DNA from: Dehalococcoidia bacterium
GTDB taxonomy: Bacteria; Chloroflexota; Dehalococcoidia; SAR202; UBA11138
NCBI GenBank assembly: GCA_012270625.1
Contig: JAAXHZ010000343.1
Span: forward strand, 1-9,856
Direction of reading: 5' to 3'
DNA length: 9,856 bases
Shown here: positions 287-9,856 of the stretch, piece by piece
How the letters are laid out: every line of letters begins with the position of its first letter
How positions within the stretch are numbered: the stretch's first letter is position 1
Translations under genes and position numbers: made by a program
Notes under the pieces: generated by a model
Databases searched by the model: none
Told to the model about the DNA's origin: nothing
Seen by the model: only the letters and a program-made list of their open reading frames with translations

Positions 287-358
287 CTAGATAATCAGCC
301 CCGCGGCTTCTGGTCTTTTCTTGCAGCCGTGGACTGGGGGTTCGGCGGACCAATTGGC
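287..358 (-). repeat. Degenerate third copy of the methyltransferase C-terminal coding end
   Basis: On the minus strand this stretch reads ANWSAEPPVHGCKKRPEAAG followed by LII and TAG. It aligns without gaps to the last 23 residues of the 962-aa methyltransferase (AKWCAEPSVHGGKKRPPGSR, LAV, stop), with 13 of 23 residues identical and the stop at the same position. At nucleotide level 311-358 matches 1160-1207 at 42 of 48 positions, and similarity fades toward the stop. Sequence upstream (359 onward) is unrelated in this frame, so only a scrap of a former methyltransferase gene remains. It forms the left border of the MNT/HEPN cassette. Confidence 0.7.
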
Positions 359-372
359 GGCGTTGCACGCTG

Positions 373-740
373 CTAGTCCCGCCTGCTGATCTTGGCGTCC
401 GCCCATGCAACTATCTCCTCGGCGATTCGGAGCGCGTCTCGATACTCATCAAGACTTACAGGCTCGGCGAGACCAGGGTATCTGATCGATACGGCATATC
501 TCGTCAGACGATTCGCTTCGGATGAACCTGCGACACAGTTAACTCCCATTTCTTCGAGAATGGTCAACAACTCCCCGATATCATGCGTGTATGGAAAGTT
601 TGCCGATTGATCGATCAGCACGGCCTTGAGCCCTTCTCGGCGGCCTGCTGGGCATGGAAGCAGAGAATCTCTGGACTTATCAGACCGGGACCCACTCGTG
701 CCGCATTCAGGTCGTCTTTCGCGAACCTGAGCCACTCCAT
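373..740 (-). pseudogene. HEPN-domain protein, frameshifted (partner of the MNT gene)
   Basis: Two frames together encode a HEPN-domain protein (PF05168-like). From ATG at 740 the first frame reads MEWLRFAKDDLNAARVGPGL and on to CFHAQQAAEK (codon 36 ends at 633). It then runs into a TGA at 615-617. The rest of the domain, LKAVLIDQSANFPYTHDIGE through RYAVSIRYPG to DAKISRRD, continues in the neighbouring frame from 630 to the stop at 373. Only two G bases lie between the AAG codon and the CTC codon, where one codon (A or G in the family pattern AAEK-x-LKAVL) is expected. A single-base loss restores a protein of about 122 residues, a usual HEPN length. The gene starts 7 bp after the MNT stop, the usual MNT-HEPN pairing. 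In studied systems HEPN is the RNase toxin and MNT adenylylates it. I could not identify a clear R-x4-6-H motif here. The break could be a true mutation or a sequencing error. Confidence 0.75.
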
Positions 741-747
741 GGGGTGG

Positions 748-1119
748 TCAGGAGGGTAGCGTCGCACGGATGTACATGTCCACGCCCTCGTTGAGGGCGG
801 GATGGATTACCAAGAACTTCACGTGCTTGTATCGCTCGACCTGTTGGGGAGTGACGAGTATGAAGTCGGCTGCCAGGCCGATTCCCCGCATGGCGACGTA
901 GAGTTCGCCTTCCAGTCGCGCACGGTCGTACTCACCGGACTTTATGACCAGAAAGTCCAAGTCTGAATCCGGCCCCATTTCGCCGCGAGCCGCGGAGCCG
1001 AATAGTATGATCCGGTCCGGTACCGCTACTTCGACCACGCGCCTTACGATTTCGTCGATCACCGCGTCGTCCGGTTGGCCGTGTTGTCTTATGTAGTCCC
1101 TCGCGGCTGTCATGAGCAT
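748..1119 (-). CDS. Minimal nucleotidyltransferase (MNT domain), antitoxin-type
   Basis: A 123-residue protein with the nucleotidyltransferase signature of NTP_transf_2/MNT proteins. ILFGSAARGEMGPDSDLDFL contains Gly41-Ser42 and the two metal-binding aspartates Asp53 and Asp55. A third acidic position is likely Asp85 in ADFILVT. The C-terminal pattern (FLVIHPALNEGVDMYIRA) is also typical of MNT domains. Family members transfer AMP to a partner HEPN protein and act as antitoxin in MNT/HEPN toxin-antitoxin pairs, which also have anti-phage roles. The partner gene follows 7 bp downstream but is frameshifted, so this gene may now be an orphan. Translation could start at ATG 1119 or at ATG 1113. 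A purine-rich GAGAGAG lies 3 bp before the first. The gene starts 16 bp after the stop of the methyltransferase-tail fragment. Confidence 0.85.
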   Translation of the reverse strand: MLMTAARDYIRQHGQPDDAVIDEIVRRVVEVAVPDRIILFGSAARGEMGPDSDLDFLVIKSGEYDRARLEGELYVAMRGIGLAADFILVTPQQVERYKHVKFLVIHPALNEGVDMYIRATLPS

Positions 1120-1135
1120 AATCTCTCTCAGTACA

Positions 1136-1411
1136 TCATACCACCAGCCTCGATCCCGGTGGCCTCTTCTTGCCGCCGTGGACTGAGGGTTCGGCGCACC
1201 ACTTGGCGGAGAGTCTGCGGACGGCCTGGTACACGGTCTCGTCGAAGCCGAGCAGGTCGCAGATGACGCGGTGGTCGAGGAGGGCGCGGTTGGGATCGGC
1301 GTCGGCGAGGAACGCGGGCATGAGGTCCTTGTCTCTGAACTCGTTGAAGATGGACTCGGCGGTGGATAGCTGGTCGTCGCTCAGCGTTCGGAAGTCGAGG
1401 ACGAATGTCAC
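1136..1411 (-). pseudogene. 3' fragment of a methyltransferase gene (duplicate of the tail of the 962-aa gene)
   Basis: This frame encodes only the C-terminal 87 or so residues of the 962-aa adenine methyltransferase, from LDFRTLSDDQLSTAESIF to KWCAEPSVHGGKKRPPGSRL, then VV and TGA. Inside the duplicated part there are two residue changes (Asp to Asn in IFDEF, Arg to His in LLDRRV). The last residues before the stop also differ (LVV against LAV). Its only possible starts are non-ATG (GTG at 1411), and an in-frame stop lies at 1439-1441. No methyltransferase motifs are present, so it is best read as a remnant. A small translated C-terminal domain cannot be excluded because the reading frame is fully intact. 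Confidence 0.8.
1144..1401. repeat. 258-bp direct repeat, copy A
   Basis: It matches 5382-5639 base for base at a constant offset of 4238, with five mismatches by eye (253 of 258 identical). Two of the mismatches change a residue-altering codon (Asn for Asp, involving two bases, and His for Arg, one base); the other two bases are silent. At the right end, identity stops abruptly at 1401/5639, the LDFR codons. At the left end it fades within 8 bp of the aligned stop codons. The pair flanks the GHKL-nuclease/Vsr/Dcm cassette. Confidence 0.95.
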
Positions 1412-1504
1412 CGCGTCACGAGATTTTCTTAACAGGGCCTACCCAACGTTAATGCTCGCCTTCTTAAGATTGACTTTGAGAATCGCAGGTGCTGGCTATA
1501 GCCT

Positions 1505-2821
1505 CTATGATTCCCGTGTAGACGATTCAGAGACTGAGAGAAGCTCATTTAGAAGGTGACCGTGGAGATAGGTGAAGTAGGGTGGGAACGCCTCGCCGAC
1601 CAAATTGCGGATGAGATAGGTGGTTCGGTTGCTCTTGGCTCGTGACCAGTCGTAGAACCTAGGGACAGTCTGCAGATCGGCACACTCCAGAATGCTAAGC
1701 ACCCGGTGCTCCCAAGGATGGATCTTGAAGTCACTGCCTATGTGGCTAGAATTGGTCGTGATAGTGTATGCGGGTCTGTCCGAAGTCATTCGCCGGTAGC
1801 TTGAGTGGAAGCCCTTGATCAACGAAGGCTGGCCATTCCTTTCTACATACGGCCTATTGCGCATAGTGCCATTGCAAGAGGGGCATACTACTCGTCCCAA
1901 CTCAACTGGCTCATACTCGCAGGATGGACAGGTATCGTTTTCGTAGGCACTTTGTCCCGAATGCGGCGGTATCTGGCTAACTTGCAGGTAGCGATCTTCG
2001 CCGTAGTCGGGAACGAAGTGTAACGGGTGTGTTCCAGAGGCCGCATCCTTGGATTTGGAGTCCAAACGCTCGTATTTCACTTCCTCGAACCATTCCCTCA
2101 CGCTCATCCACGACTGCGTTCCGTTTCCCGCCCTCTCCCCATGAGTTGGACACGGCCACAGACTACGACCTTCTGTGGCCGTTCGATTAAACCAAGGCTC
2201 GTTCTTGTGAACTGCCACGACCAGAGCACGCCTTCTGACCTGGGGAATCCCATAGTCAGCTACATTCACCACTCCTGGGAACAGTTCATATTCTTCCTTT
2301 AGACCATTACGAAGGAGGTCGACTATCTCCCCTTTGTCTCCTTTATACTCAACATTGAGAGTCAACACCTGCCGAACATTTTCGGCGACGATTATTCTCG
2401 GCTTAAGCAACCGGGCGAGCGGAATAACTTCGAGTATGAGTCGATTCTTCTCTTCTAGTGCATTTGCCTTGGTCGTCTGCCGCTTACCCCGACTTGGGTT
2501 AGAGCTACTCATGCCTTGACACGGGGGCGTGGCTACCAAGAGATCAAGTCGCTGCGGCGTACTTTTGTTGTAGGCTTCGGCGATCTTGTCATGGCTTTTG
2601 CGGACATCGTCAGTAATCCACGTTGAATTGGGAAAGTTATCTGAACCAACGTCAGCCCGTCGCTGATCCACCTCGACTTGTACAAGAAACTGGAACCCTG
2701 ATAACTCGTACCCTATGTCGCTAAGCCCAGCTCCAGAGAACAAGGATATCCCAGTCCTTGGCACAGCAAGCTCCGGCCTCTCCTCCTGCATCACGAAATC
2801 TCTGAGTGTCAGGTTAGGCAT
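1505..2821 (-). CDS. dcm: DNA (cytosine-5-)-methyltransferase, Dcm family
   Basis: A 438-residue C5-cytosine methyltransferase that transfers a methyl group from S-adenosylmethionine to cytosine in a specific DNA site. Motifs appear in canonical order: I (SLFSGAGLSDIG, near residue 27), IV (ATPPCQGMS, catalytic Cys101), VI (VAENV, 145-149), VIII (GIPQVRRRALVV, about 191-202), IX (RPAYTITT, about 349-356) and X (GEAFPPYF, about 409). The target-recognition segment between VIII and IX is long and contains two CPSC knuckles (about 298-301 and 313-316), suggesting a zinc ribbon. I chose ATG 2821 over ATG 2827 because GGAG lies 6 bp before it, whereas that GGAG abuts the first ATG. The start overlaps the vsr stop by 8 bp, indicating translational coupling. 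It presumably protects host DNA from the nuclease encoded two genes upstream. G+C is lower than in the flanking genes. Confidence 0.93.
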   Translation of the reverse strand: MPNLTLRDFVMQEERPELAVPRTGISLFSGAGLSDIGYELSGFQFLVQVEVDQRRADVGSDNFPNSTWITDDVRKSHDKIAEAYNKSTPQRLDLLVATPPCQGMSSSNPSRGKRQTTKANALEEKNRLILEVIPLARLLKPRIIVAENVRQVLTLNVEYKGDKGEIVDLLRNGLKEEYELFPGVVNVADYGIPQVRRRALVVAVHKNEPWFNRTATEGRSLWPCPTHGERAGNGTQSWMSVREWFEEVKYERLDSKSKDAASGTHPLHFVPDYGEDRYLQVSQIPPHSGQSAYENDTCPSCEYEPVELGRVVCPSCNGTMRNRPYVERNGQPSLIKGFHSSYRRMTSDRPAYTITTNSSHIGSDFKIHPWEHRVLSILECADLQTVPRFYDWSRAKSNRTTYLIRNLVGEAFPPYFTYLHGHLLNELLSVSESSTRES

Positions 2822-3293
2822 CCTCATCTCCGGCGGTTTGGTCAGGATCTCCTGAAGATGCTGCTCGAATTATAGGTACCAGCTTTTCGACAGTCTGCGT
2901 GAGCGCCGTTTTGGTTCGGACATCGTGTTCAGGAACACGGAGCACTTTCCAGCCTTGGCTCCTGAGAGTTGCCGTGACTCGTTGGTCACGTTTCCTGTTG
3001 GTGTCTATCTTGTTTACCCAGAACGCACCGCTCTGCTCAGGAGACTTGCCGCACTTAGGGCACCCATGCCAGAAACATCCGTCGACAAAAATGAGGATCC
3101 TCTTTCTTGGGAACACCATATCCGGATTCCCGATGATCTTCTCGCCTGTCACAGACTTGTAGCCTTCATGCGTAAAGTACCGGATCCCTTGTCGCCACAA
3201 CCCAGATGCCAATACCCGCTCAGGAAAAGTTCTCCCACGGTTATGTGCCATGGCCTTGTATCTCTGTTCCGGAGTCATCACATCATTGCGCAA
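2814..3293 (-). CDS. vsr: Very short patch repair (Vsr) family endonuclease
   Basis: A 159-residue Vsr-type nuclease. In E. coli, Vsr nicks beside T:G mismatches that arise when a methylated cytosine deaminates. The family signature is clear: MTPEQRYKAM near the N-terminus, IIGNPDMVFPRKR with the metal-binding aspartate (Asp58), FVDGCFWHGCP (69-79, zinc ligands and His), FWVNKI, then NRKRD and GWKVLRVPEHDV. His124 takes the place of the zinc-binding cysteine, as in many homologues. The start is probably TTG at 3293: GAAGAG lies 6 bp before it and it leaves 3 bp after the ATPase stop. The ATG at 3278 (MTPEQR) is the alternative but has no well-placed ribosome site. The gene sits between the GHKL-nuclease and dcm genes and overlaps dcm. 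The Dcm partnership suggests mismatch repair, though in restriction loci Vsr-like nucleases may also restrict. Confidence 0.93.
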   Translation of the reverse strand: MRNDVMTPEQRYKAMAHNRGRTFPERVLASGLWRQGIRYFTHEGYKSVTGEKIIGNPDMVFPRKRILIFVDGCFWHGCPKCGKSPEQSGAFWVNKIDTNRKRDQRVTATLRSQGWKVLRVPEHDVRTKTALTQTVEKLVPIIRAASSGDPDQTAGDEDA

Positions 3294-3296
3294 GTG

Positions 3297-5312
3297 TTAC
3301 TCTTCCTCGACAGATAGTTCTGGGAGTTCTCCCTGCATTACCCTCACCACCGTAAGGAAGTCTTCGTGACTACGGTCTGTTGCTTGAAGGAGATCATGCC
3401 ATGTCTTGTGGGATACATCAGTGTCGGTTCGTATTGTGTTCTTTTGCAGATCGCTGAGATTCAGGGAGTCGCACACGATCGTCAGCTTAGCGTTGGGGAA
3501 AGCCATTTTGACCTCGGTGGTGTTGTCAATGAAATTCCTTACTGCCACTAAGTAACCGAATGCTCTATCGAATTCAGCGTCAGTCAGCGCGTGCTGAGGG
3601 CGCTTAATTTCAATCACCTCCAGCGATCCGATGTGATTGAGCATTACGAAGTCAGGCTGCTTGGTCGGGTCGTCTATAGCAGAAGTACTAATCTCTTCCT
3701 GATAATTGGCAGAATACCAACTCTCGAAGTTCAAACGAGTTGATGCGAGAGTCTGGTTGAAACTCAACGGCGTCCAATCAGGATAGAGTATCCATGGAGC
3801 CTTCTCGACAAGTCTTTGCAACTGCCTCTCGTGCGCAGACGGTTCTGACACTAGCCTGCGTAGCTGTTGCACTGCTTCAACCCGCTCTCTAGCAACCTGA
3901 CCAAGGGAGTACATCTCGACTACCCGAGCTCTTTCAAAAAGGTCGACTATCGCCTCTATAGGTCCGGTGGCCTTAGATGCGATCTCATCTAGCGTGTCTA
4001 GCAAAGTTCGGTGCGGGCCTAAGGTGAACGCCAAGTTGACGACACGCTCCACGAACTCAGGGTCTCGGATCGAGTCTCGATCAGCACGCGTAACCATTGA
4101 CCTTGCAGTTCTGATCACGGATTCTCGAACATCACGATCATTAGGCAAGGCCCTCTCAAGTCGTGCCTGCAGTCCCGATATTTCGAGAAATAGGTCCCAC
4201 ACGCGGCGGCCTGCACTGGACTCTGCCTTTGCTGCCAACTCCTTGAGTAATTCATGTCCCCATTCACGAAGCGCAGATCCAACATCAGAGTTCCAGATTA
4301 TATCTTGCCTGTCGGTTCTAATAAGGTCATCAGTCTCATCAAGCCATTCCGCATGGATTGCTCCCGTCAGGTAGCTCCTCATCTTGAATTCACCGGTGAA
4401 TCCAGTTTTGATGTCAAAGTCCCTAGTTTGGGCTACGATTTTCCCCCTAGCATAAATGCGAACCCCTGCCATCACTTCATCTTTGTAAGGGTCTTTCGCA
4501 TAAGCAACCCAGCCGGACACTGGATAGTAGTCATCCCCTACCTTTACTGGTCTGTTATCCACATCAATGCGTGTGCCGTCCATGAAATCCACATTCAACG
4601 TGCCGAGTTCAACTGTCTCGTTCTCTCTGGTACTGTCCTCTAGCCTGACGTTCCAGTTGTTCTGGCTTAACCCAAAGCGGGCGGCCAACTGGCGATCCAA
4701 TTCCTCTCCAGTGGGGACCCGCCTCCGGTCAAAGCGCCTCAGGATGAGCTTAGTGCCTGTTGAACCCGCATAGGTGCCATCGTTCTGTCCAGGTTGTGGA
4801 TGGTAGGGTTCAATGTTTCCATCCGCATCCATTTTCTCATTCAGAATGTCGTCAAGGTCTAGGATCAGATTAGATACTGGATAACCGTTAGCAGTTCGAA
4901 CTCCTCCAGCACTTATGACTTCCACTTCATGGCAGATTCCAAAAGGCGCTAGCTTGCCAATTCCCTTCCTACCCATGACTTTCCGTTGGTGTTTCGGCGT
5001 TAGCTCATTGCGCCCAACTCGTCGATTGTACCCAACGTTCAGATAATGTTCATTGACCTCTTGTGCGGTCATCCCACTGCCGTCATCCTCAATCACAATC
5101 TCAAAGCCTTGGTCTTCCATCTGTCCCATCATTTTCCGGGCTAGGTATCGACCGAAAGGCAGAGTGATCTCCACGTTCTCAGCATCCGCGTCGTAGGAAT
5201 TGGCTATTAGTTCAGCCAATACTGCGGAAACCCTGTCATACATCTGAATCCCCAGCTTGTCGATAGTCAACCGGGATATCCTCATGGTGTATTTCTTAGA
5301 ATTCGGTTGCAT
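3297..5312 (-). CDS. GHKL (MORC/Hsp90-like) ATPase fused to a PD-(D/E)XK nuclease
   Basis: A 671-residue two-domain protein. The N-terminal GHKL ATPase has the N box ELIANSYDAD (34-43), the G1 box DDGSGM (76-81) and the G2 box GRKGIGKLA (114-122), followed by a transducer-like region to about residue 350. After a largely helical middle (about 350-500), the C-terminal domain (about 495-660) begins ERQLQRLVEKAPWIL and carries PDFVML (Asp554) and EVIEIKRP (Glu568-x-Lys570). That pattern is a PD-(D/E)XK nuclease core resembling DUF4263/Shedu. Published analysis of MutL/MORC-like ATPases in restriction loci pairs such proteins with C5 methylases and Vsr, as here. I infer an ATP-gated clamp that cuts unmodified or foreign DNA. 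The frame is open back to 5582, but the extra 90 residues are antisense-like sequence across the 258-bp repeat. GAGGTG, 5 bp before ATG 5312, fixes the start. G+C is low (25 of 60 in 4381-4440). Confidence 0.9.
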   Translation of the reverse strand: MQPNSKKYTMRISRLTIDKLGIQMYDRVSAVLAELIANSYDADAENVEITLPFGRYLARKMMGQMEDQGFEIVIEDDGSGMTAQEVNEHYLNVGYNRRVGRNELTPKHQRKVMGRKGIGKLAPFGICHEVEVISAGGVRTANGYPVSNLILDLDDILNEKMDADGNIEPYHPQPGQNDGTYAGSTGTKLILRRFDRRRVPTGEELDRQLAARFGLSQNNWNVRLEDSTRENETVELGTLNVDFMDGTRIDVDNRPVKVGDDYYPVSGWVAYAKDPYKDEVMAGVRIYARGKIVAQTRDFDIKTGFTGEFKMRSYLTGAIHAEWLDETDDLIRTDRQDIIWNSDVGSALREWGHELLKELAAKAESSAGRRVWDLFLEISGLQARLERALPNDRDVRESVIRTARSMVTRADRDSIRDPEFVERVVNLAFTLGPHRTLLDTLDEIASKATGPIEAIVDLFERARVVEMYSLGQVARERVEAVQQLRRLVSEPSAHERQLQRLVEKAPWILYPDWTPLSFNQTLASTRLNFESWYSANYQEEISTSAIDDPTKQPDFVMLNHIGSLEVIEIKRPQHALTDAEFDRAFGYLVAVRNFIDNTTEVKMAFPNAKLTIVCDSLNLSDLQKNTIRTDTDVSHKTWHDLLQATDRSHEDFLTVVRVMQGELPELSVEEE

Positions 5313-5317
5313 GGATT

Positions 5318-5323
5318 CACCTC
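5318..5323 (-). promoter_or_regulatory. Ribosome binding site of the GHKL-nuclease gene
   Basis: GAGGTG on the minus strand, 5 bp before ATG 5312. It decides the start of the first gene of the cassette against the longer open frame. I see no convincing sigma70 promoter in the 61 bp between the methyltransferase stop and this start, so the cassette may depend on read-through from the methyltransferase operon. Confidence 0.75.
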
Positions 5324-5373
5324 GACGCATATGAAATGGATATGCCCGAGTCGTATTGTCGGACACCCCACAC

Positions 5374-8262
5374 CTACACCGCCAGCCTCGATCCCGGTGG
5401 CCTCTTCTTGCCGCCGTGGACTGAGGGTTCGGCGCACCACTTGGCGGAGAGTCTGCGGACGGCCTGGTACACGGTCTCGTCGAAGCCGAGCAGGTCGCAG
5501 ATGACGCGGCGGTCGAGGAGGGCGCGGTTGGGATCGGCGTCGGCGAGGAACGCGGGCATGAGATCTTTGTCTCTGAACTCATCGAAGATGGACTCGGCGG
5601 TGGATAGCTGGTCGTCGCTCAGCGTTCGGAAGTCGAGGATGGGGAGGGATTCGGCAGAGCGAATGGTCAATCTGGCCTTGCTGGACTGCTGTCTGCTGGA
5701 ACCCCACCACCATGACACTAGACCTAAAGTGCTGTTACCCCACACTGTAAATGCATAGTCTAATCGTTCGTCTTTGAAAGTCACGTCTGACCATACACTC
5801 CCGCTGAGGGATAGTCTCTCAGTAAATGCGACCGCTAAAGGCTGTGAGCCGAATGTGAAGTCCAGATTCAGATGAGTACGACTCGCTGTTGACCATACGA
5901 CTGCTGCCTTAACTTCCATACCTAGGCGCACTTGTAGCTGCGAGTCCGGGTTACAGACGATTCGAGTTTCGCTCTTGGCGTTATGGTTCCAAAGAGAAGG
6001 GTATGTTGCTGTCGCGCTGGGCGTAATCTTGTCGAACGGCCCACGGGGTGGAGGGCCGTTTATATCTCGGTGAACGAGTCCCAGACGGCCGATCTTGCCA
6101 AGACGACTGACTGCCAGTTCAACATGTGCAGCAGTCCCAGGCAACCATAGCTTGGAACTCGACATTGCAGCGGCTGTCTGGGCGATGGAGTAGTCTGACA
6201 CGCGGACCGCGCCCCAAACATCTCCGTTTGGACTGGCTGGGGCCGACAGGACTTCGCCGGCTGGGTTTTCACCTTCCATGAGAGAGTTGCCGCCGTAAGG
6301 CCCATCCTCGATTTGCCGGATGTCGCGCTGGCCAACAAGGTCTCTGGACAATGATGCGGCGCTCGCAAAGCCTTGAGGACGCTTGTCAAGCGAGGTGAAC
6401 TTGCCCCGCTCTCCGGACGCTTCTGTATCCAAGAGCTTGCGGGCGATGACCAAGCATTCAGCCATCCCCGTATCCGAGGAGAAGGACATGTCCTTGCCGT
6501 TGGCGGCGATGCTCAAAACTGTCAGGTCTGAGTAACTCCCACCAAGTAACTCTCTGAATCCCTTCCATGAGAGCCCGGCGGACACAGACAGAGGCAGCAC
6601 CATCGCCAGGACTCCGCCCGGCTTGAGCTTCTTGTCAACGAGAGCGGCGAATGCTGACGCGATGCCGGCGTTGCCGTGGTAGCAGGTGTTCTTGCCGAGC
6701 TGGTTTATTCGCTTGCCCATCGCGGTCTGGTCTGCATCGGTCGCGCCAAAGGCAGCGAACGCGGGGTTGGTCACGTCGGCGTGCGCGCCTTCGTGGTTCG
6801 TCGCGCGTGTAAACGGTGGGTTCATTATCACCAGGTCGAAGCCATCGTCGGGGATGTCTGCTATGACCTGTGTGGCGGTCTCCTCGCCGACGCTGCCTGT
6901 GCGGAGCGCGGGATCGCTCATGTTGAACAGGGTCATCGTCGAAGACGACTGCAACAGCTCCAGTGAGCCGATGGCGACGCTGCGGTCCTCCTGTCGTCCG
7001 TAGGCGAGGGTGTACAGCCGCGTCTTGCCGAAGCCGACGTTGGGCTGCGCGCCGGACAGCGTGGAGCCGGTGATGTGGATGGCGGACGGCATCACGTCGC
7101 AGCCGTACAGCACCTCCTCCATCATGACGGGGTGAAGCGTGACGAGGTCGCCGCCAGCGCTCTCGTGGCGCGTGGCTATCTGCTCGTACACCGCAGACAG
7201 CAGCGCGCCGGTGCCGCACGCGAAGTCGCCGATTCGGAGACTGCCAATAGCGTCGGCGTCCGACCAGTCCACGTCCATCTTCGAGACGGCAAGTCGCGCG
7301 AGCAGAGCCGCGGACGCCGGCAGTGTGTAGAAGGTCGCGAGGTACTTGCGGTCGGCAATGAGCCGCTGGAAGATGCGTCCGGTCAGGTCGTGCGCCTGGT
7401 TCGCGCCGGTTGCAGCCACGTCCTCGACGGTAGTGCGCAGGTTGGACAGCAGCTGAGACGCCTCAGCCGCGGGAAGCTGCTCTACGATGTCTCGGGCAAT
7501 GGAGAAGATCGGCCAGTAGTTGACCTTGAGGATCTGTGTCCAGGCGTCGAGAATGTTCGACTTCGGATTCGCGATAGAGGTCGAGCACAGCTGCGACAGC
7601 GGCTTCACGTCGTGCAGTCCGGCGAGACGCTCGTGGAACACCATAGCGTTGGCGACGATAGCCCCTGCCATGCGGTAGGTTTGCAACACCTCGGACATTC
7701 CGAGCAGGCCAGCGATGCTGGTGACGACGTCGGGCTTGGACTTGGCAAGCTGACCGAGGATGGCGGCGGCGCGGTCGATGCCTTTTTCGAGCGCGTCCGC
7801 GGCCTCGTCCACAGCGCGCTGCGGCACGGACACGAGCCGGACGAGGTCCGCGAGGTCTTCGGTAGCCCCGTCGAGCCAGCCTGACTCCGGGAACCGCGTG
7901 CCGTCCTGGTAGTGCACGCAGTACGACAGCCGGGCGTCGGAGACGGCAGCGGAGAGGTCGTCGGAGTCTTCGAGTCCGTCCGGGTATCGGAGGGCGATGG
8001 CGGCGTCGATGTGTCGAGCCGTGCCTAAGACTTCGAGGCCCAGCCTGTCCTTTGCCTCCTTCTCAGCGGTGTAGGCGGGCATGAACTCGGCTTCGATCAC
8101 CACCGGGGCGCGACCGGGCGCGGTGATAAGGATGTCCGGCTGAAGAGCGGGGTGATCGACGATCTGCTGGGTATTCTCAGAGCGAACCTCGTAGGTGGGC
8201 AGCATCTGTTTGAGAATCCCGCCCAGGACGCTGTTCGCGGTAGGTTCGGTGTGACGTGGCAT
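5374..8262 (-). CDS. DNA adenine-N6 methyltransferase with putative N-terminal nuclease motif (Type IIG-like)
   Basis: A 962-residue protein. Residues 43-59 hold a nuclease-like core (PDILI then VVIEAEF: Asp43, Glu57-x-Glu59) followed by TAEKEAKDRLG, as at the N-terminus of combined restriction-methylation enzymes. The usual lysine is glutamate, so activity is uncertain. The methyltransferase domain starts near DRKYLATFYTLP (304-315). It has motif I DFACGTG (346-352) for S-adenosylmethionine and motif IV NPPF (481-484), the gamma-class adenine signature. Residues about 620-875 would be the target-recognition region. The C-terminal 87 residues from LDFRTLSDD to WCAEPSVHGGKKRP are conserved and duplicated downstream. 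G+C is about two thirds in the N-terminal half and the tail (41 of 60 in 7021-7080, 40 of 60 in 5401-5460) but near half in the recognition region (31 of 60 in 5881-5940), suggesting a swapped segment. It follows the 250-aa gene by 17 bp, so it is probably co-transcribed. A methylase-only role, as in BREX or DISARM-like systems, is the alternative. Confidence 0.9.
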   Translation of the reverse strand: MPRHTEPTANSVLGGILKQMLPTYEVRSENTQQIVDHPALQPDILITAPGRAPVVIEAEFMPAYTAEKEAKDRLGLEVLGTARHIDAAIALRYPDGLEDSDDLSAAVSDARLSYCVHYQDGTRFPESGWLDGATEDLADLVRLVSVPQRAVDEAADALEKGIDRAAAILGQLAKSKPDVVTSIAGLLGMSEVLQTYRMAGAIVANAMVFHERLAGLHDVKPLSQLCSTSIANPKSNILDAWTQILKVNYWPIFSIARDIVEQLPAAEASQLLSNLRTTVEDVAATGANQAHDLTGRIFQRLIADRKYLATFYTLPASAALLARLAVSKMDVDWSDADAIGSLRIGDFACGTGALLSAVYEQIATRHESAGGDLVTLHPVMMEEVLYGCDVMPSAIHITGSTLSGAQPNVGFGKTRLYTLAYGRQEDRSVAIGSLELLQSSSTMTLFNMSDPALRTGSVGEETATQVIADIPDDGFDLVIMNPPFTRATNHEGAHADVTNPAFAAFGATDADQTAMGKRINQLGKNTCYHGNAGIASAFAALVDKKLKPGGVLAMVLPLSVSAGLSWKGFRELLGGSYSDLTVLSIAANGKDMSFSSDTGMAECLVIARKLLDTEASGERGKFTSLDKRPQGFASAASLSRDLVGQRDIRQIEDGPYGGNSLMEGENPAGEVLSAPASPNGDVWGAVRVSDYSIAQTAAAMSSSKLWLPGTAAHVELAVSRLGKIGRLGLVHRDINGPPPRGPFDKITPSATATYPSLWNHNAKSETRIVCNPDSQLQVRLGMEVKAAVVWSTASRTHLNLDFTFGSQPLAVAFTERLSLSGSVWSDVTFKDERLDYAFTVWGNSTLGLVSWWWGSSRQQSSKARLTIRSAESLPILDFRTLSDDQLSTAESIFDEFRDKDLMPAFLADADPNRALLDRRVICDLLGFDETVYQAVRRLSAKWCAEPSVHGGKKRPPGSRLAV
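5382..5639. repeat. 258-bp direct repeat, copy B (inside the methyltransferase gene)
   Basis: This is the 3' coding end of the 962-aa methyltransferase gene, duplicated at 1144-1401. Being attached to the complete gene, it is probably the functional copy. Its right boundary is the junction between the lower-GC recognition region and the conserved C-terminal segment (PILDFRT). Confidence 0.95.
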
Positions 8263-8279: not shown

Positions 8280-9032
8280 TCAGCCGCTGGACTCTTCTAT
8301 TCCGCGGATGTCTTCTTCGACCTGGCCGAGCTTCACGTACTCCTCGGACATGAGATGGAAGCAGCGCTGTAGGTAGAGGCTGGCCAGCTGGGCGGCGTTC
8401 TCACCGCCTGAGCTGGCGGCGTCGGCGAGGCGGGATACCTGGTGGCTCTCAGGCAGGTGTCGTCCGAGCGCGATGATCTCGGCCCTGGTCTCGCCGGCGA
8501 GTGCGATGTCGCCGGTGCCCACGGCATCGCGCAGTCTGCCCACCAGTCTGGTCAGCTCGCTCAGCTTGTCCTGGTCGCTCATGAGTCCGTACAGGACGTC
8601 GTTCACGCTCAGGCTGTCGTCATCGACCTCGTCGGCGATCGCGTCGGGCTGCTGGATCTGGTCCGAGCAGAGGTCGGCGTACCAGCCAATCGCCTCGTTG
8701 ATCGTGCCGAGCAGAGAGGTGACGTCCATCGTCGAGACCGTCCCTCCAAAGATGATGTCGTCCTCACGGGCTTCGGCGAGGTCCTGGATGTAGCTCATGC
8801 CGCTGACCGGCTCAGGAGCGGGCGGGAAGGCGAATGCCGAAAGCTCCTTTGCGCCCACTTCGCCGATCTGGTTCATCAGAAACGGCGGGACGTACTTGGA
8901 CACATCGACCAGGATCGGCAGCACCACCAAGTACGTCGCCAGAAGCTCGCCGGCGTCGTGCGAGCTCTGGAAGTAGATGAGTGCGTGGCCCCTGGGGCTG
9001 TCAGCCGAGCCGCGTTCGAAGGTGAAGTCCAT
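8280..9032 (-). CDS. Uncharacterised protein upstream of the methyltransferase
   Basis: A 250-residue soluble-looking protein, starting MDFTFERGSADSPRGHALIY. I recognise no catalytic motif and no family. The N-terminal part is a mix of hydrophobic and charged stretches (ATYLVVLPILVDVSKYVPPF could be buried core rather than membrane). The middle is acidic (EVDDDSLSVND), and the C-terminal half is mostly helical with many Leu, Ala and Glu residues (LARL-like heptad patterns between about 165 and 245). It is the first gene behind a good promoter and lies 17 bp from the methyltransferase start, so the two are likely one operon and may work together as a regulator, inhibitor or accessory subunit. 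That link rests on position only. ATG 9032 is the natural start. Its ribosome site is weak (GAGTGGA). Confidence 0.8.
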   Translation of the reverse strand: MDFTFERGSADSPRGHALIYFQSSHDAGELLATYLVVLPILVDVSKYVPPFLMNQIGEVGAKELSAFAFPPAPEPVSGMSYIQDLAEAREDDIIFGGTVSTMDVTSLLGTINEAIGWYADLCSDQIQQPDAIADEVDDDSLSVNDVLYGLMSDQDKLSELTRLVGRLRDAVGTGDIALAGETRAEIIALGRHLPESHQVSRLADAASSGGENAAQLASLYLQRCFHLMSEEYVKLGQVEEDIRGIEESSG

Positions 9033-9110: not shown

Positions 9111-9126
9111 CCCTCGGTTCTTTTTC

Positions 9127-9159
9127 GAGGAGTGAGTGAAGAGGAGTGAGGAGTGAGAG
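9127..9159. repeat. 33-bp direct repeat, copy 1 (just after the mrr stop)
   Basis: GAGGAGTGAGTGAAGAGGAG and 13 more bases, identical to 9625-9657 over 33 bp and built from GAGTGA-like units. This copy lies 10 bp downstream of the endonuclease stop codon, in the gap before the next promoter. Confidence 0.95.
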
Positions 9160-9169
9160 TGGATCGTCG

Positions 9170-9856
9170 TCAGGTGTGGTGGTTTTCGGCCTGATTTTGG
9201 GGGTGGCAGGGGGTGTTGGGTGTGACTCGCACGTTGTGAGTGAGCATGAGGCTGGCTAGCTCATGGCCGTCTATGAGGCGGATGTGCTTGGCTCCGGTCG
9301 AGATCGTCTCGGCAGTGTGTCGGGCCGCGGCGGTGAAGTCGGAGGTGGTGATGAAGATGCCCCTGGTCGCGCCGTGGGGGTCGAGACTGCCGGAGAAGTT
9401 CCTGATCTCGGGTTCTCCAACCTGCTTGGTCCAGCGTTTGGCCTGGACGTAGAGCCTGTCGAGTCCGAGGGTGTCCTGGTCCATGATGCCGTCTATACCT
9501 CCGTCTCCGGCGCGTCCGACGTGGTGGCCGCGTCCGTAGCCCATGTTTTCGAGCAAGTCGAGGACGGTGCGCTCAAAGCGCTGGGGTGGGAGGTGGTGGA
9601 GAGTGTCGATGATGTCGTCTGTTTGAGGAGTGAGTGAAGAGGAGTGAGGAGTGAGAGAGGGTTGTTCGACAGGGTCGGGGGCTTCGACGGTCTCGGCGCG
9701 GGCGGATCTGCCGAAGCCTCGGTCGAGAAGCTCTCTCGCGGCTGCCATGCGGTGGTGCGGCTTGAAGGTCCTGAGCTCGCCTTCCATGACGTTGACTAGG
9801 AAGCGGACGATGGAGCGTCCGTCGTCGGTGTCTTCCCTGATGACCCTGGCGAGCTC
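9170..9856 (-). CDS. mrr: Mrr-type restriction endonuclease, 5' end beyond the window
   Basis: The frame is open to the window edge, so the gene begins further right. The 23 codons before ATG 9787 (ELARVIREDTDDGRSIVRFL...) continue smoothly into MEGELRTFKPHHRMAAAREL and look like the same domain. Counting from ATG 9787, a 30-60 aa low-complexity linker (PSLTPHSSSLTPQ, 43-55) joins an N-terminal module of unknown function to an Mrr catalytic domain: FERTVLDLLENMGYGRG (71-87), GDGGIDG (Asp95, Asp99), VQAKRW (Gln115-x-Lys117), GIFITTSDFTAAA (143-155) and IRLIDGHELASLM (169-181). Mrr enzymes are PD-(D/E)XK nucleases with a Q-x-K core. Several cut methylated DNA (Type IV restriction). If this one does, the two methyltransferases downstream would have to avoid its target. 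The N-terminal module is not the usual Mrr winged helix as far as I can see. Confidence 0.88.
   Translation of the reverse strand, partial: ELARVIREDTDDGRSIVRFLVNVMEGELRTFKPHHRMAAARELLDRGFGRSARAETVEAPDPVEQPSLTPHSSSLTPQTDDIIDTLHHLPPQRFERTVLDLLENMGYGRGHHVGRAGDGGIDGIMDQDTLGLDRLYVQAKRWTKQVGEPEIRNFSGSLDPHGATRGIFITTSDFTAAARHTAETISTGAKHIRLIDGHELASLMLTHNVRVTPNTPCHPQNQAENHHT
9625..9657. repeat. 33-bp direct repeat, copy 2 (inside mrr, encodes the linker)
   Basis: This is the second identical copy of the GAGTGA-type repeat. It lies within the coding frame and encodes the linker LTPHSSSLTP between the N-terminal module and the Mrr nuclease domain. The two copies are 498 bp apart, a multiple of three. 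Confidence 0.95.

What the first reader, a model, noticed from the sequence alone, without database searches (positions are those of the whole stretch)
1136..5639. Defence cassette bracketed by a 258-bp duplication of a methyltransferase 3' end
The last 258 bp of the 962-aa methyltransferase gene recur 4238 bp downstream with 5 mismatches, and both copies end at the same aligned stop codon. The block between them is a complete, lower-GC GHKL-nuclease/Vsr/Dcm operon. This is what is expected if the operon arrived by recombination into the end of the methyltransferase gene, rebuilding the gene and leaving the old tail behind. The repeats could also let the cassette excise as a circle or be exchanged. 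I see no integrase in the window, so homologous recombination or a mobile element acting in trans is needed.
Basis: partly seen in the sequence, partly recalled or inferred. Interest (0 to 1): 0.78.

Follow-up and report, generated by a model that had tools for sequence, protein, structure and literature searches.

The report
Restriction operon between duplicated gene tails
In this DNA from an uncultured bacterium, a DNA-cutting defence operon sits between two near-identical copies of the last 260 letters of a neighbouring defence gene, and such leftover gene tails also occur in related bacteria, some of them beside other defence genes, which hints at how defence genes may pile up at one spot.

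Summary
In detail: 1144-1401 repeats at +4238 with 5 mismatches in 258 bp, and the stop codons align. The layout is methyltransferase, [GHKL-nuclease/Vsr/Dcm], tail 2, [MNT/HEPN], tail 3. The 962-aa protein has an Eco57I-type methylase domain; the operon resembles BbrUII/HgiDII-type R-M systems.

Tails without their gene recur: in one order (250 genomes) 18 of 75 tail matches lie in short frames, 15 after clean-up, against 1 of 55 for a middle segment; heads, the fairer control, give 6 of 53 (p = 0.11). Some stand beside Dcm/DUF4928/Vsr, HigBA-like, GmrSD or HEPN genes, but the link to defence genes is not firm. Related operons elsewhere have neither tail nor flanking repeats, so the repeat belongs to the target locus, not the cassette.

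Best reading: cassettes entered behind this gene's 3' end and left a duplicated tail ('long target duplication'). A truncated tandem copy is the main rival. No integrase, attC-like fold, empty site or excision was found. New variant of a known kind.

The parts
5374..8262 (-). 962-aa Eco57I-type methylase, probably a type IIG restriction-methylase
   Evidence: PF07669 28.1 bits against cut-off 25.3; 6386 of the 8000 candidates scored are homologues at E up to 0.001
5374..5639 (-). tail 1: 3' end of the intact methyltransferase gene (residues from about 875, with stop TAG)
   Evidence: 97.7% over 262 bp to tail 2
3297..5312 (-). GHKL-ATPase/nuclease restriction protein, 671 aa (start at MQPNSKKYTM, chosen by comparison with relatives)
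   Evidence: PF13589; NF050001 BbrUII/HgiDII family, residues 9-656 of the 672-aa query, E 3.7e-71, but 240.5 bits against an equivalog cut-off of 550
2814..3293 (-). Vsr-type endonuclease, 159 aa
   Evidence: TIGR00632 113.1 bits against cut-off 97.85
1505..2827 (-). Dcm-type C5-cytosine methyltransferase, 440 aa
   Evidence: PF00145 E 1.4e-32
1136..1401 (-). tail 2: orphan copy of the methyltransferase 3' end (residue 875/877 to stop TGA), 103 bp behind Dcm
748..1119 (-). MNT-type nucleotidyltransferase, 123 aa, starting about 17 bp after the tail 2 stop
   Evidence: PF01909 E 7.6e-10
373..735 (-). HEPN-domain protein, 120 aa
   Evidence: PF05168 E 3e-12
287..361 (-). tail 3: degraded remnant of the last 24 codons, 12 bp behind HEPN
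   Evidence: 80% over 65 nt; tblastn 54%, E 5e-4; 88% over 50 nt

Best explanation
The 3' end of this methyltransferase gene is a place where defence cassettes have entered more than once. Each entry placed a cassette directly behind the gene and left a second copy of the gene's tail on its far side, so older tails lie further away and are more decayed: tail 3 behind MNT/HEPN is older, tail 2 behind the BbrUII/HgiDII-like operon is younger. Shown: the repeat, the three tails, their order of decay, the same kind of layout in L033 and partly in L001, and the absence of tails around related operons elsewhere. Inferred: that the tail was duplicated at insertion ('insertion with long target duplication', probably through recombination in the tail) and that the order of entry is as stated. 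The enzymes are unknown; no site-specific recombinase was found among the window proteins scanned.
For: Repeat and third tail. In L033 the intact gene is followed by a SocA/Panacea-type gene with a small partner (both on the other strand), tail 2 (90% to the gene), a weakly HicB-like gene and a tail fragment. In L001 a degraded second tail follows two genes; the match (91.5% over 177 nt with gaps) runs about 70 nt past the stop. Tails of one locus: window 1/2 98% over 262 nt, L033 90%, L001 91%, L098 93%; the window's tail 1 reaches 82% over the whole tail in other loci and 89% over 120 nt in L098. In 86 loci plus the window (1.37 Mb of flanks) the short gene pieces outside longer copies are tails: two in the window, two in L033, one in L001; the only other one, L065, is part of one gene with a broken frame. 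Related operons in G016, G456 and G541 have no tail of this family; 6 related operons show no flanking direct repeat beyond 12-21 bp chance-level hits (E 0.048 or more).
Against: No empty-site or single-tail relative of this very locus was available. The 5' ends of orphan tails vary from about residue 845 to 939, so no fixed site is used. Orphan heads exist too (9 of 66), and the excess of tails over heads is only a trend (18 of 75 against 6 of 53, p = 0.11). About 40 nt of the L001 repeat behind the stop is an interspersed repeat with hits in 20 loci, so that flank is weaker evidence than it looks, although only the L001 pair matches over 70 nt. Tail 3 is no closer to its own locus (88% over 50 nt) than to L098 (88% over 43 nt), and L098a has 93% within its locus against 90.5% to L014. 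Protein differences between tails 1 and 2 (D/N, R/H, A/V) lie at positions that vary among intact relatives, which fits import of another allele as well as copying.
Confidence: 0.45

Rival explanations
1. Truncated tandem copy: the gene was first duplicated in tandem, its ends were kept alike by gene conversion, and the 5' part and body of the second copy were then replaced by the R-M operon, leaving only the tail.
For: Tandem full-length pairs in L018, L056 and L069. In L018 codons 0-450 are 94-99% and codons 900-950 97% identical while codons 500-750 are 49-62%. L101 holds [gene head, 42 codons]-[Dcm, DUF4928, Vsr]-[gene tail] and L107 [N-terminal part of a distant relative, 33%]-[DUF4928, Dcm]-[tail, 55%], i.e. 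the body of a single copy replaced.
Against: No head or body piece was found in the 61 bp between the methyltransferase stop and the GHKL start; in L033 and L001 too only tail pieces were found. Two rounds would be needed for the window.
Confidence: 0.32
2. Tails are recombination sites that travel with cassettes, as attC sites do in integrons.
For: Cassette-tail series: L098 has HigBA-like genes, tail, a gene that looks HNH-like by eye (no family match), tail, and a weakly HEPN-like gene; the window has two such units.
Against: Related operons elsewhere have no tail of this family. Five strands from four tails fold no better than shuffles (z -1.0 to 0.85). No integrase among the 9 window proteins scanned. 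Variable 5' ends.
Confidence: 0.07
3. Assembly artefact: a metagenome assembler joined different strains or loci at the repeated methyltransferase tail.
For: The window appears as a 9856-base contig and no whole genome is held for it; the tail is multi-copy in many relatives.
Against: The two tails differ at 5-6 positions before the last codon; the join of Dcm flank to a truncated tail lies at the edge of the repeat, where a repeat-driven misjoin would not fall. The tail-2 protein with its junction residues MTF is listed on 2 contigs. Tails behind defence genes also occur on contigs of 1.38 Mb (L101) and 295 kb (L102).
Confidence: 0.08

Closest known systems
Insertion with long target duplication of R-M gene complexes (Nobusato et al. 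2000, and a 2010 NAR paper whose author Furuta I recall; both seen only as citations in PMC3031569, the second not held)
   Same: An R-M unit flanked by a long direct repeat of target DNA. [quoted passage not shown]
   Different: Here the target is the 3' end of another restriction-methylase-like gene, which stays intact, and the event seems to recur in series with three tails.
Prophage integration in a gene 3' end with a replacement tail (phage 21/e14 at icd; recalled, no call)
   Same: Geometry: intact gene with new tail, element, displaced old tail.
   Different: No integrase found; 5' ends of tails vary; related cassettes lack the tail.
MORC/paraMORC R-M operons (PMC2292703, passages seen) and BbrUII/HgiDII restriction enzymes (NF050001)
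   Same: The paper reports MORC-family GHKL genes with cytosine methylase and VSR endonuclease genes, and a paraMORC3 family with a C-terminal nuclease domain.
   Different: The window's GHKL protein was not assigned to one of the paper's families here; it scores below the NF050001 cut-off. The cassette is ordinary; only its placing is of interest.
Integron gene-cassette arrays (recalled)
   Same: Repeated element between unrelated cassettes.
   Different: No integrase found, no attC-like fold, the repeat is a coding gene end and does not travel with the related operons tested.

Membership tests
Insertion with long target duplication of R-M systems | R-M unit flanked by long direct repeats | tested here: met
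   262-bp repeat at 97.7% flanks the operon
Insertion with long target duplication of R-M systems | an allele without the insert has a single copy of the repeat | not testable with these tools
   no close relative of the locus with context held
Insertion with long target duplication of R-M systems | related units show such duplications at other sites (a feature I added, not from the papers) | tested here: not met
   none within 3 kb of 6 related operons
Integron cassette array | tyrosine integrase near the array | tested here: not met
   none among the 9 window proteins scanned; the window is only 9.9 kb
Integron cassette array | repeat folds as an attC hairpin | tested here: not met
   z-scores -1.0 to 0.85 for 5 strands
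BbrUII/HgiDII-type R-M system | full-length match to the restriction protein model above its cut-off | tested here: not met
   full-length match, E 3.7e-71, but 240.5 bits against a cut-off of 550; so 'like', not a member
BbrUII/HgiDII-type R-M system | C5 methyltransferase adjacent | tested here: met
   Dcm at 1505-2827
Type IIG restriction-methylase | Eco57I-type methylase domain | tested here: met
   PF07669 above cut-off
Type IIG restriction-methylase | N-terminal nuclease active site | tested here: inconclusive
   PDILI...VVIEAE resembles PD-(D/E)XK by eye; no nuclease family match; structure model too poor
HEPN/MNT (type VII) toxin-antitoxin | HEPN gene with MntA-type partner | tested here: inconclusive
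   PF05168 and PF01909 above cut-off; NF047752 MntA 28.9 bits against 60

The most novel reading that the evidence does not exclude
The conserved 3' end of a widespread type IIG-like restriction-methylase family works as a standing recombination boundary in Chloroflexota and other uncultured bacteria: homologous recombination in the tail lets R-M and toxin-antitoxin cassettes be added, replaced or shuffled behind or inside the gene, building tail-delimited defence arrays, while the same homology swaps the enzyme's middle, probably its specificity part, between tandem copies.
Probability: 0.15. Interest if true: 0.8.

Novelty: new variant of a known kind. Interest (0 to 1): 0.47.

Why it matters
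How defence islands grow without integrases or transposons is an open question (my judgement, no call). Here a single gene end may mark successive cassette entries, so the order of entry could be read from tail decay. The family has thousands of members and short orphan tail proteins are common in metagenomes, so the idea can be tested by comparing strains. If it holds, a defence gene's own end is the docking homology for further defence genes.

Tried and rejected
The tail as a folded recombination site: rejected. Rfam (gathering scores) and tRNA in the window: nothing, so no tRNA-type attachment site. The tail on plasmids: no match (phages not tried with the tail). The methyltransferase on plasmids and phages: only relatives below 60% identity. 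The idea that the cassette carries the tail with it: rejected by tail-less relatives. PDB by sequence: no match at E up to 0.001. Structure model: mean pLDDT 51, not used and not searched. L018, L056 and L069, first taken for extra tails, are tandem full-length genes. Dropped from the list of orphan tails: L093 (no hit), L090, L091, L094, L095, L097 and L100 (longer or broken-frame genes), L096 (distant, residues 806-952), G364:C132 (contig edge); G023:C3:5766 was not examined.

Counting cautions. A middle piece needs two breaks, an end piece one, so 18 of 75 against 1 of 55 partly follows from geometry; heads are the fairer control (6 of 53, p = 0.11; heads were searched in 197 of the 250 genomes). 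In the protein database the tail query gave 808 of 810 candidates and the head query 50 of 56 (the 808 include the window's own), but tails are better conserved (median 80% against 70% in 119 homologues), and by eye many of the 120 listed tails begin at internal start codons or after an out-of-frame stretch, so broken frames upstream cannot be excluded.

Neighbour test. The orphan tails' neighbours were scanned with Pfam at E up to 0.01 or 0.001 and some with PADLOC, the control neighbours with Pfam at 0.001 only, which favours my reading; several tails share a locus. With 12 of 21 against 4 of 20, p = 0.025; leaving out the four weak cases, 8 of 21 against 4 of 20, p = 0.31.

Literature: the listings showed no title about methylase tails between defence cassettes; only the held open-access library was searched.
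Full report
The observation. The two copies are real and the coordinates are right: 5 mismatches in 258 bp and aligned stop codons. Outside the repeat the flanks are unrelated. The genes between them are open. The GHKL protein matches the BbrUII/HgiDII restriction enzyme model along nearly its whole length, though below that model's cut-off, and stands next to a Vsr and a Dcm gene. GHKL proteins of the MORC kind next to cytosine methylase and VSR genes were described in 2008 (PMC2292703, passages seen). The gene that lends the tail encodes an Eco57I-type methylase of 962 aa, probably a single-chain restriction-methylase; its nuclease part rests on a motif seen by eye.

A third tail. The 75 bases at 287-361, 12 bp behind the HEPN gene, still read as the last 24 codons of the same gene. 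The window is therefore a series: gene, R-M operon, tail 2 (98%), MNT/HEPN, tail 3 (88% over 50 nt). Decay grows with distance from the gene.

Relatives. No whole genome of the window is held. A scan with an alignment of 21 methyltransferases found 506 relatives, of which the best 80 were kept; all 80 titles say metagenome-assembled genome, most of them Dehalococcoidia, Caldilineaceae or other Chloroflexota, with some Binatota and other phyla, and some genomes hold several copies. That many of these are sponge symbionts is recalled. In these 80 and 6 viral-contig loci plus the window, 1.37 Mb of flanks were searched for any piece of the gene: the only short pieces outside longer copies were tail pieces, two in the window, two in L033 and one in L001, apart from L065, a gene with a broken frame. 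L033 repeats the window's layout with other cassettes: gene, SocA-type gene with a small partner of no known family, tail, weakly HicB-like gene, tail piece. In L001 the repeat also covers about 70 nt behind the stop; some 40 nt of this is an interspersed repeat with hits in 20 loci.

Census. In all 250 held genomes of one order a 90-residue tail query gave 75 matches at E up to 1e-6, 18 of them in open frames under 300 aa; 15 remain after removing two broken longer genes and one contig edge. A 91-residue catalytic segment gave 55 matches, 1 in a short frame, part of one of those broken genes. A head query gave 66 matches at E up to 1e-3 in 197 of these genomes, 9 in short frames; at E up to 1e-6 it is 6 of 53. 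Ends thus survive and middles do not; that tails outnumber heads is a trend only (p = 0.11). In the protein database the gap is wide, 808 against 50 short proteins, with the cautions given under Tried and rejected.

What stands next to orphan tails. I listed 21 tails or tail pieces in 18 sequences. In 12 the nearest gene on at least one side is an R-M, toxin-antitoxin or listed defence gene: both of the window, both of L033, L001, both of L098, L099, L101, L102, L107, L138. Four are weak: the second of L033 (HicB-like, below cut-off), the second of L098 (HEPN, below cut-off), L001 (DarG-like) and L102 (no family match; 25% to our methyltransferase). L138 was assigned by hand because its GmrSD frame overlaps the tail. 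Nine were not counted: L087 (its R-M pair is one gene further away), L088, L089, L092, L103-L106 and L139. Around intact genes 4 of 20 loci (of 43 listed) have such a neighbour on either side: RAMP, TIR, PIN, PemK. That is p = 0.025, but p = 0.31 without the weak four. For the upstream gene on the same strand it is 8 of 21 against 2 of 20, p = 0.067. The link is suggestive, not proven. The clearest cases are the window, L033, L098 and L101.

Cassette or target. Relatives of the operon were sought in the same 250 genomes: 10 have the GHKL protein at E up to 1e-20, three of them at 69-74%. Of eight regions fetched none has a tail piece of this gene; L158 has a full-length distant relative (26%) facing the operon. 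Six were tested for flanking direct repeats and show only chance-sized hits. The repeat is thus a mark of the methyltransferase locus. Tails 1 and 2 agree at 98%, against 82% for the whole tail and 89% over 120 nt in other loci; L033, L001 and L098 show 90-93% within the locus. For tail 3 and one L098 tail other loci come equal or close. They are copies of each other or are kept alike by recombination.

How it most likely works. Insertion behind the gene with duplication of its tail explains the window, L033 and perhaps L001 (confidence 0.45). Replacement of most of a second, tandem copy would explain the window too (0.32); single copies with their body replaced (L101, L107) and tandem copies with uniform ends and a divergent middle (L018) exist. 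The tail does not fold like an attC site and no integrase was found among the window proteins scanned. Whether the cassette can leave again was not testable.

Verdict. The cassette is ordinary; the serial tails and their recurrence are the interesting part.

Noticed in passing
window 9124-9167 and 9622-9665: A 44-nt GAGTGAG-rich direct repeat (91%) brackets the Mrr nuclease domain of the ORF at 9170-9787; an exact 24-nt stretch of it is in none of the 163 loci fetched. The domain may have been inserted at the end of another gene.
   Followed up: partly
L018 10001-15997: Two tandem methyltransferases with 94-99% identical first 450 codons, 97% at codons 900-950 and a 49-62% middle: looks like a swap of the specificity part.
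   Followed up: partly
L103 7599-8259 and L106 7919-8413: Head of the gene joined almost directly to its tail, the middle lost; L106 lies next to a tyrosine recombinase gene, perhaps the housekeeping xerD.
   Followed up: no
P0121-P0240: Many short tail proteins begin at the same internal start codons (88, 98, 113, 136, 144 aa) or after an out-of-frame stretch, as if frames often break near residue 845-875 (by eye).
   Followed up: no
L101 and L142: A 6.1-kb stretch with the Dcm cassette and the gene head is present twice in G456 at 96%; a segmental duplication or two strain copies.
   Followed up: no
L001 12890-12964 and 15208-15277: The 3' flank shared by both L001 tails contains a short interspersed repeat with hits in 20 loci.
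   Followed up: partly
window 8280-9032: 250-aa ORF upstream of the methyltransferase with no Pfam, PADLOC or NCBIfam match and no tblastn hit at E up to 1e-4 in 86 methyltransferase loci.
   Followed up: no
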